From assembly GCA_903834195.1 (NCBI GenBank), contig CAILIB010000024.1, positions 1-39,494 of the forward strand: a stretch of DNA of 39,494 bases, in the 5' to 3' direction. Positions 19,988 to 20,340 of this stretch are shown here, piece by piece (position 1 is the first letter of the stretch; each line of letters starts with the position of its first letter). The DNA is from an uncultured Candidatus Berkelbacteria bacterium. GTDB lineage: Bacteria > Patescibacteriota > UBA1384 > CAILIB01. Made by a program: the position numbers and the translations under genes. The notes under the pieces were generated by a model. It was given only the letters and a program-made list of their open reading frames with translations, had not been told where the DNA came from and made no database searches.

Positions 19988-20099
19988 TAAAAAAGAGAAC
20001 CCGCACAGACACGGGTTCCTATAATTCGGGGCCGCATTTGGCAAAGGGCCCTTTCCTCTTAATTTTAGGCAGAAGGTGAAACACCTGAATTTCAGAGTA
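19988..20099 (-). ncRNA. candidate small RNA A
   Basis: Promoter TTGATA (20128-20133) -17 bp- TATACC (20105-20110); transcript ATTACTCTGAAATTCAGG...GAGGAAAGGGCC...GGCCCCGAATTATA; terminator GAACCCG-TGTCTGTG-CGGGTTC-TCTTTTTT; paralogous to RNA B. Confidence 0.75.
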
Positions 20100-20169
20100 A
20101 TTTAGGTATAACATCAATTTTGGGTGATATCAAATTGGGACCGAATTTTACTTTGTAATCTGTTATTTA

Positions 20170-20300
20170 TAAAAAAGAGAACCCGCACGGTGCGGGTTCA
20201 TATAATTCGGGGTCGCTTCCATGATTCTAGTACGACCCTTTCCCCTTTGGTTCATCCGCCTCCAGGATTGGCATTTGTTATGATGCCTGAACTTCAGAGT
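20170..20300 (-). ncRNA. candidate small RNA B
   Basis: Promoter TTGATA (20330-20335) -17 bp- TATACA (20307-20312); transcript ACTCTGAAGTTCAGG...GGGGAAAGGGTCG...CGACCCCGAATTATA; terminator GAACCCGCACCGTGCGGGTTCTCTTTTTT. Confidence 0.75.
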
Positions 20301-20340
20301 GTTTTATGTATATCAGATTAGATTCATTGTATCAATAATG

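What the first reader, a model, noticed from the sequence alone, without database searches (positions are those of the whole stretch)
19988..20335. Tandem pair of small RNA genes with covarying helices, own promoters and own terminators
Two ~110-130-nt units lie head-to-tail on the minus strand, ~202 bp apart. Each has a promoter with exactly 17-bp spacing (TTGATA-17-TATACC for A, TTGATA-17-TATACA for B), begins ACTCTGAA[A/G]TTCAGG (an 11-nt near-palindrome), and contains A-G-[A/G]-GGAAAGGG. Each continues to a helix closing on CCCCGAATTATA and ends with a GAACCCG..CGGGTTCTCTTTTTT terminator. Arms covary between copies: AGGTG-TTT-CACCT vs GGCAT-loop-ATGCC, and GGGCC..GGCCC vs GGGTCG..CGACCC. 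The loops and linkers diverge, and neither unit contains a plausible ORF. I do not recognise it as 6S, SRP, RNase P or tmRNA. This looks like a duplicated structured sRNA family.
Basis: partly seen in the sequence, partly recalled or inferred. Interest (0 to 1): 0.88.

Follow-up and report, generated by a model that had tools for sequence, protein, structure and literature searches.

The report
Tandem pair of sibling small RNAs
Two neighbouring, related small RNA genes, each with its own promoter and terminator, sit side by side in a small-genome bacterium and match no known RNA family; they look like an ordinary kind of regulatory RNA pair, and a mobile element has landed exactly at the start of the first one's promoter.

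Summary
Two diverged copies (A 20171-20300, B 19989-20098, minus strand) keep the promoter hexamers, the RNA 5' end, a GGAAAGGG block, a 3' CCCCGAATTATA block and an intrinsic terminator, while spacers, loops and linker have drifted. Rfam has no match. A model built from both copies finds only A and B in the host genome and nothing convincing in about 445 other genomes of the same phylum, mostly one species per genus, so this is a lineage-specific orphan family. "Covarying helices" is overstated: one pair is unambiguously compensatory; two more are so only if aligned by structure.

Best explanation: sibling small regulatory RNAs from a tandem duplication, acting like OmrA/OmrB through shared blocks. 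The transcription units are well supported by sequence; transcription is untested and the mode of action is inferred. CsrA sponging, a cis leader and a 6S-like RNA are weaker rivals.

By-product: a 1,122-bp IS481-like element with a 5-bp target duplication ends exactly where unit A's -35 box begins. In eight of nine distinct related insertions with matching duplications, from this phylum to Klebsiella and E. coli, TTG follows the duplication directly. This supports promoter A, shows the RNA locus predates the element, and points to a promoter-targeting IS481 subgroup.

The parts
20330..20335 (-). -35 box of unit A, TTGATA
   Evidence: sequence; identical in both units while the 17-bp spacer is 4/17 identical
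20307..20312 (-). -10 box of unit A, TATACA, 17 bp from -35
20171..20300 (-). unit A: predicted ~130-nt small RNA
   Evidence: fold z -3.1
20286..20300 (-). unit A 5' block ACTCTGAAGTTCAGG
   Evidence: 14/15 with unit B
20236..20243 (-). unit A GGAAAGGG block
   Evidence: within an 11/12 conserved stretch
20201..20216 (-). unit A 3' block GCGACCCCGAATTATA
   Evidence: 15/16 with unit B
20179..20199 (-). unit A intrinsic terminator hairpin, followed by TCTTTTTT
20128..20133 (-). -35 box of unit B, TTGATA
20105..20110 (-). -10 box of unit B, TATACC, 17 bp from -35
19989..20098 (-). unit B: predicted ~110-nt small RNA
20084..20098 (-). unit B 5' block ACTCTGAAATTCAGG
20049..20056 (-). unit B GGAAAGGG block
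20020..20035 (-). unit B 3' block GCGGCCCCGAATTATA
19996..20019 (-). unit B intrinsic terminator hairpin
20341..21462 (-). IS481-like insertion sequence, 1,122 bp (transposase 20350-21408), ends TGTAAAAG.../...CCCGTACA; not part of the RNA genes but abuts promoter A
20336..20340 (-). 5-bp target duplication CATTA, right copy, directly followed by the -35 box of unit A
21463..21467 (-). 5-bp target duplication CATTA, left copy
19706..19963 (-). downstream gene for an 86-aa membrane protein with its own extended -10-like TGCTACAAT just before the ATG; independent of the RNAs
   Evidence: homologues in 15 of 100 genomes; none of the three same-family loci read (L010, L013, L014) shows the RNA upstream

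Best explanation
Units A and B are two paralogous, independently transcribed small non-coding RNAs (sibling sRNAs) that arose by tandem duplication of a whole promoter-to-terminator unit. Shown from sequence: two homologous units, each with a sigma70-type promoter and an intrinsic terminator; drift everywhere except the promoter hexamers, the RNA 5' end, the GGAAAGGG block, the CCCCGAATTATA block and the terminator; small hairpins (P2, P3) possible in both. Inferred: both are transcribed; they act in trans, most likely by base-pairing with mRNAs through the shared 5' end and/or the purine-rich GRGGAAAGGG segment, so that shared blocks give common targets and the divergent linker gives copy-specific ones, as for OmrA/OmrB. 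Likelihoods: real independent sRNA genes about 0.8; acting mainly by base-pairing in trans about 0.5.
For: Block-wise conservation with drifted flanks and spacer and homology far above shuffles. Exact 17-bp promoters at equal distance from the shared 5' end. Terminators in both. No shared ORF. Not a cis leader of the 86-aa gene: in the three same-family genomes whose locus was read the orthologue stands without the RNA, and here it has its own -10 next to the ATG. Promoter A is independently marked by a mobile element whose relatives insert directly upstream of -35 boxes. The layout matches the review's description of OmrA/OmrB: tandem, 88 and 82 nt, near-identical first 21 and last 35 nt (PMC4211561).
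Against: No transcript data. No homologue outside this genome, so conservation rests on two copies. Folding of unit B without its terminator is no better than shuffled sequence. No target was predicted: the whole genome was not available as a file. Presence of an Hfq-type chaperone was not tested.
Confidence: 0.5

Rival explanations
1. CsrA-sequestering RNAs (CsrB/RsmY-like): GGA-containing segments of A and B bind and titrate CsrA.
For: A CsrA homologue above the Pfam cut-off is encoded in the genome; the conserved GRGGAAAGGG contains GGA in a predicted single-stranded linker; A also has AUGGA in the P3 loop region.
Against: GGA is not enriched: 4 against 2.3 expected in A (p 0.15) and 1 against 1.0 in B; the full ANGGA motif occurs once in A and not in B. 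CsrA sponges usually carry several GGA hairpin loops (general knowledge).
Confidence: 0.12
2. Cis-acting leader/attenuator: unit B (and A) controls read-through into the downstream 86-aa membrane protein gene.
For: Unit B's terminator lies about 28 nt upstream of the ATG at 19963, same strand.
Against: Unit A precedes another promoter, not a gene. Orthologues of the 86-aa gene in other family members have no such leader. The gene has its own extended -10-like TGCTACAAT placed for a leaderless mRNA. No known riboswitch model matches.
Confidence: 0.1
3. The RNAs belong to, or are relics of, the neighbouring mobile element.
For: The IS ends 6 bp upstream of promoter A; transposase and unit A are on the same strand.
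Against: IS ends and a 5-bp target duplication place the whole A/B locus outside the element. Two other IS copies in the genome have no such RNA. The duplicated promoter hexamers in B predate the insertion.
Confidence: 0.04
4. 6S-like RNA pair that binds RNA polymerase.
For: Rfam 6S is not found in this (76% complete) genome, and some bacteria carry two 6S RNAs (PMC4211561).
Against: Too short (110-130 nt), no long imperfect duplex with a central bubble in the predicted folds, no 6S hit at E up to 10.
Confidence: 0.04
5. Short leader peptides or small proteins rather than non-coding RNA.
For: One reading frame is open through both cores and the core length difference (21 nt) is a multiple of three; unit A has ATG behind GGAGG at 20255.
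Against: The shared frame has an in-frame stop just upstream and no shared start codon; A's frame runs through the terminator hairpin and has no counterpart in B. The U66-A88/C66-G88 change is explained by pairing.
Confidence: 0.05

Closest known systems
OmrA/OmrB (enterobacterial sibling sRNAs)
   Same: Tandem, head-to-tail, ~80-130 nt, own promoters and terminators, near-identical 5' and 3' ends with divergent middle (PMC4211561).
   Different: No sequence similarity by Rfam scan; different phylum; Hfq dependence untested; extra conserved internal blocks (GGAAAGGG, CCCCGAATTATA).
PrrF1/PrrF2 and AbcR1/AbcR2 (tandem sibling sRNAs)
   Same: Tandem duplicated sRNA genes with separate transcription units.
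   Different: No sequence match; in PrrF the tandem order yields a read-through RNA (PrrH); whether A reads through into B is unknown.
CsrB/RsmY-type CsrA-binding RNAs
   Same: GGA-containing sRNAs; CsrA is present in this genome.
   Different: No GGA enrichment; few ANGGA motifs.
ISKpn28 (IS481 family), for the neighbouring element
   Same: About 32-40% identical transposases across the group, TACA-type right end, 5-bp duplication, insertion directly upstream of TTG... -35 boxes.
   Different: Window element is a distant member below NCBI's IS481 cut-off (140 against 224 bits); other IS481 elements use NCTAGN (ISLxc2, PMC2516522).

Membership tests
Sibling sRNAs (as a kind) | two or more highly similar sRNA genes in one genome | tested here: met
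   homologous A/B
Sibling sRNAs (as a kind) | separate promoter and terminator for each copy | tested here: met
   (sequence level only)
Sibling sRNAs (as a kind) | each copy is transcribed as a discrete small RNA | not testable with these tools
   no RNA data
OmrA/OmrB family | match to the Rfam covariance model | tested here: not met
   no match at gathering or E up to 10
Any Rfam family | score at or above the gathering score | tested here: not met
   only tRNAs in the window
CsrB/RsmY CsrA sponges | multiple GGA/ANGGA motifs in hairpin loops | tested here: not met
   no enrichment
CsrB/RsmY CsrA sponges | CsrA encoded in the genome | tested here: met
6S RNA | covariance-model match and long duplex with central bubble | tested here: not met
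Cis leader/riboswitch of the 86-aa gene | RNA retained upstream of orthologues | tested here: not met
Structured RNA family with covariation | compensatory changes across several homologues | tested here: inconclusive
   only two sequences; one two-sided change
IS481 / ISKpn28-like subgroup (neighbouring element) | rve (DDE-type integrase) transposase, TG...CA ends, short target duplication | tested here: met

The most novel reading that the evidence does not exclude
The locus joins two new things. First, a lineage-specific sRNA pair in a small-genome bacterium (probably Patescibacteria) with no known relative. Second, a subgroup of IS481 elements, including the window's element and ISKpn28, that chooses targets by the promoter: its 5-bp target duplication ends exactly where the -35 hexamer begins, with the transposase reading towards the promoter, so the promoter and its gene are left intact. 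The transposase may read the -35 box or promoter-bound sigma/RNA polymerase.
Probability: 0.6. Interest if true: 0.62.

Novelty: new member of a known kind. Interest (0 to 1): 0.42.

Why it matters
Small regulatory RNAs in small-genome, probably host-associated bacteria of this group are little described (two literature searches found nothing direct); a duplicated pair with preserved promoters and blocks would be a concrete entry point. The by-product matters more widely: an insertion sequence that selects -35 boxes would be a natural promoter finder and a clear case of benign target choice, and it can be tested in E. coli with an ISKpn28 derivative.

Tried and rejected
Homologue searches: blastn of the locus in 100 relatives (one 23-bp chance match), phages and plasmids; covariance model R1 in 60 relatives, 56 class members, 6 close genomes with looser filters and 389 phylum genomes: best outside hit 28.5 bits lies inside a transposase reading frame, others are coding or chance. 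Patterns in genome contigs (one Chryseobacterium hit, model-negative) and viral contigs (28, 91 and 0 hits; the 28, and the 80 of the 91 that were scored, are model-negative). The CTGAANTTCAG palindrome as a genome-wide operator: five sites in the genome, the three others lie in what look like coding sequences. CsrA sponge by GGA counts, coding potential, 6S: see rivals. RNAalifold's pairing of the purine block with the U-tail consists largely of A-U and G-U pairs and is not supported by the single-sequence folds.

Full report
What is there. On the minus strand, unit A (20300 to 20171) and unit B (20098 to 19989) are homologous, 202 bp apart start to start. Each has TTGATA, exactly 17 bp, a TATAC[A/C] box and 6 nt to a shared start ACTCTGAA. 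Conservation between the copies is sharply localised: -35 6/6, -10 5/6, 5' block 14/15, AAGRGGAAAGGG 11/12, GCGRCCCCGAATTATA 15/16 and the terminator stem, against 1/14 upstream and 4/17 in the promoter spacer. The cores without terminators score 27 in local alignment against 13.7 +/- 2.0 for shuffles. This is the pattern expected of two genes kept by selection on promoter and RNA, not of a recent copy or of chance.

Structure. P3 (GGGYC...GRCCC) and the terminator are firmly predicted in both copies; P2 is firm in A and about half-formed in B; the long-range closing helix P1 is possible in B but hardly populated in A. P2 and the P3 extension are each seen in 2-7% of shuffles of the variable parts. 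Formal covariation is one two-sided change; if P2 is aligned by structure, two more. Most of the excess folding stability comes from the terminators.

Not a known family. Only tRNAs in the window reach an Rfam gathering score, and permissive scans of the locus give only chance matches. A covariance model of A and B finds only A and B in the 1.13-Mb host genome and nothing convincing in relatives, class or phylum samples. No other member of the same genus was held, so the family may be confined to close relatives. From genome sizes and the kinship listing I take the organism to be a member of the Patescibacteria (inference, not tested by name).

Not a leader of the next gene. The 86-aa membrane protein gene downstream of B has orthologues in 15 of 100 genomes; in the three same-family genomes whose loci were read (70%, 57% and 48% identity) there is no such RNA upstream. 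Here it has its own TGCTACAAT directly before the ATG.

The neighbouring element. The transposase gene at 20350-21408 belongs to a 1,122-bp IS481-like element with ends TGTAAAAGATCACCCTC.../...GAGGGTGATCCCGTACA and a 5-bp duplication CATTA on both sides. The right duplication (20336-20340) is followed at the next base by the -35 box of unit A (20335). The other two copies in the genome show right end, 5 bp, then TTGACA-17-TACTAT and TTGACA-17-TAGTAT. I therefore checked relatives. Nine distinct insertions have matching 5-bp duplications on both sides: the window copy, L055, L156, L161 (Nitrosophilus plasmid), L168 (E. albertii plasmid), L171 (Klebsiella ISKpn28; same site in L173 and L182), L172, L175 (E. 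coli, upstream of htpX) and L176 (E. coli, beside hokD). In eight of nine the next bases are TTG (TTGATA, TTGACA, TTGACA, TTGACT, TTGACC, TTGCAA, TTGAAA, TTGCCT); L172 has TGTCAA. By chance a fixed TTG would be expected in 1 of 64. Four more with only the right end readable (L056, L155, L159, L179) all show TTGACA. Copies without a matching duplication, or whose left end I did not find (L162-L167, L174, L177/L178/L180, L181/L183), do not show it; they look rearranged or degenerate, but L177/L178/L180 (upstream of yegH, one site) is an unexplained exception. In most promoter cases a -10-like box lies 16-18 bp further on. ISKpn28 insertion 'upstream of hokG' has been described without comment on promoters (PMC6339943); other IS481 elements use NCTAGN (PMC2516522). 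I found no report of -35 targeting in the searches I could make, which do not cover the whole literature.

For the main finding this has two consequences. The A/B locus lies outside the element and existed before it arrived. And promoter A is marked independently as a promoter by an element whose relatives insert directly upstream of -35 boxes.

How it probably works. The best-supported reading is a pair of sibling sRNAs as in OmrA/OmrB (PMC4211561): shared blocks for common targets, divergent middle for separate ones. Base-pairing in trans is inferred. CsrA is present, but GGA motifs are not enriched. 6S is absent from the assembly by Rfam, but the units do not look like 6S.

Verdict. Observation confirmed; interpretation partly supported; a new member of a known kind with moderate interest. 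The promoter-targeting IS481 subgroup is the more surprising by-product and is readily testable.

Noticed in passing
20336-21467 (IS at 20341-21462); 34967-36055; L056, L155, L156, L159, L161, L168, L171, L175, L176, L179: IS481/ISKpn28-like elements whose 5-bp target duplication is followed directly by TTG... of a -35 box (8 of 9 distinct insertions with duplications on both sides; 4 of 4 further right ends listed here): apparent promoter-targeting transposition. L172 and the yegH site (L177) are exceptions.
   Followed up: yes
L155:2510-2573: The IS copy in genome G189 sits upstream of a DUF3800-IX structured RNA (RF02968), with a DUF3800-like protein gene (recognised by eye) on the opposite strand; together with sok beside the hok copies and unit A here, several insertions lie at promoters of small RNAs.
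   Followed up: partly
34967-36055: Second IS copy in the window, with target duplication TCAGA; its transposase frame carries an internal TAG.
   Followed up: partly
21481-21625, 21928-22041, 34695-34818, 37028-37090: A repeated intergenic stretch (about 73-79% identical) recurs in the window, two of the copies near tRNA genes.
   Followed up: no
20156-20174 and 20302-20320: A 19-nt imperfect inverted repeat (84%) flanks unit A; probably chance in AT-rich promoter and tail sequence.
   Followed up: no
19345-19659: 104-aa protein with a hydrophobic C-terminal half and no Pfam or NCBIfam match, followed by a large ClpB/ClpA-like ATPase and type IV pilin-like genes.
   Followed up: no
20054-20060 and 19990-19996 (unit B), corresponding positions in unit A: The conserved purine block AAGRGGA is complementary, with G-U pairs, to the terminator's UCUUUUU tail; RNAalifold pairs them. 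Could mask the 3' end or be coincidence.
   Followed up: no
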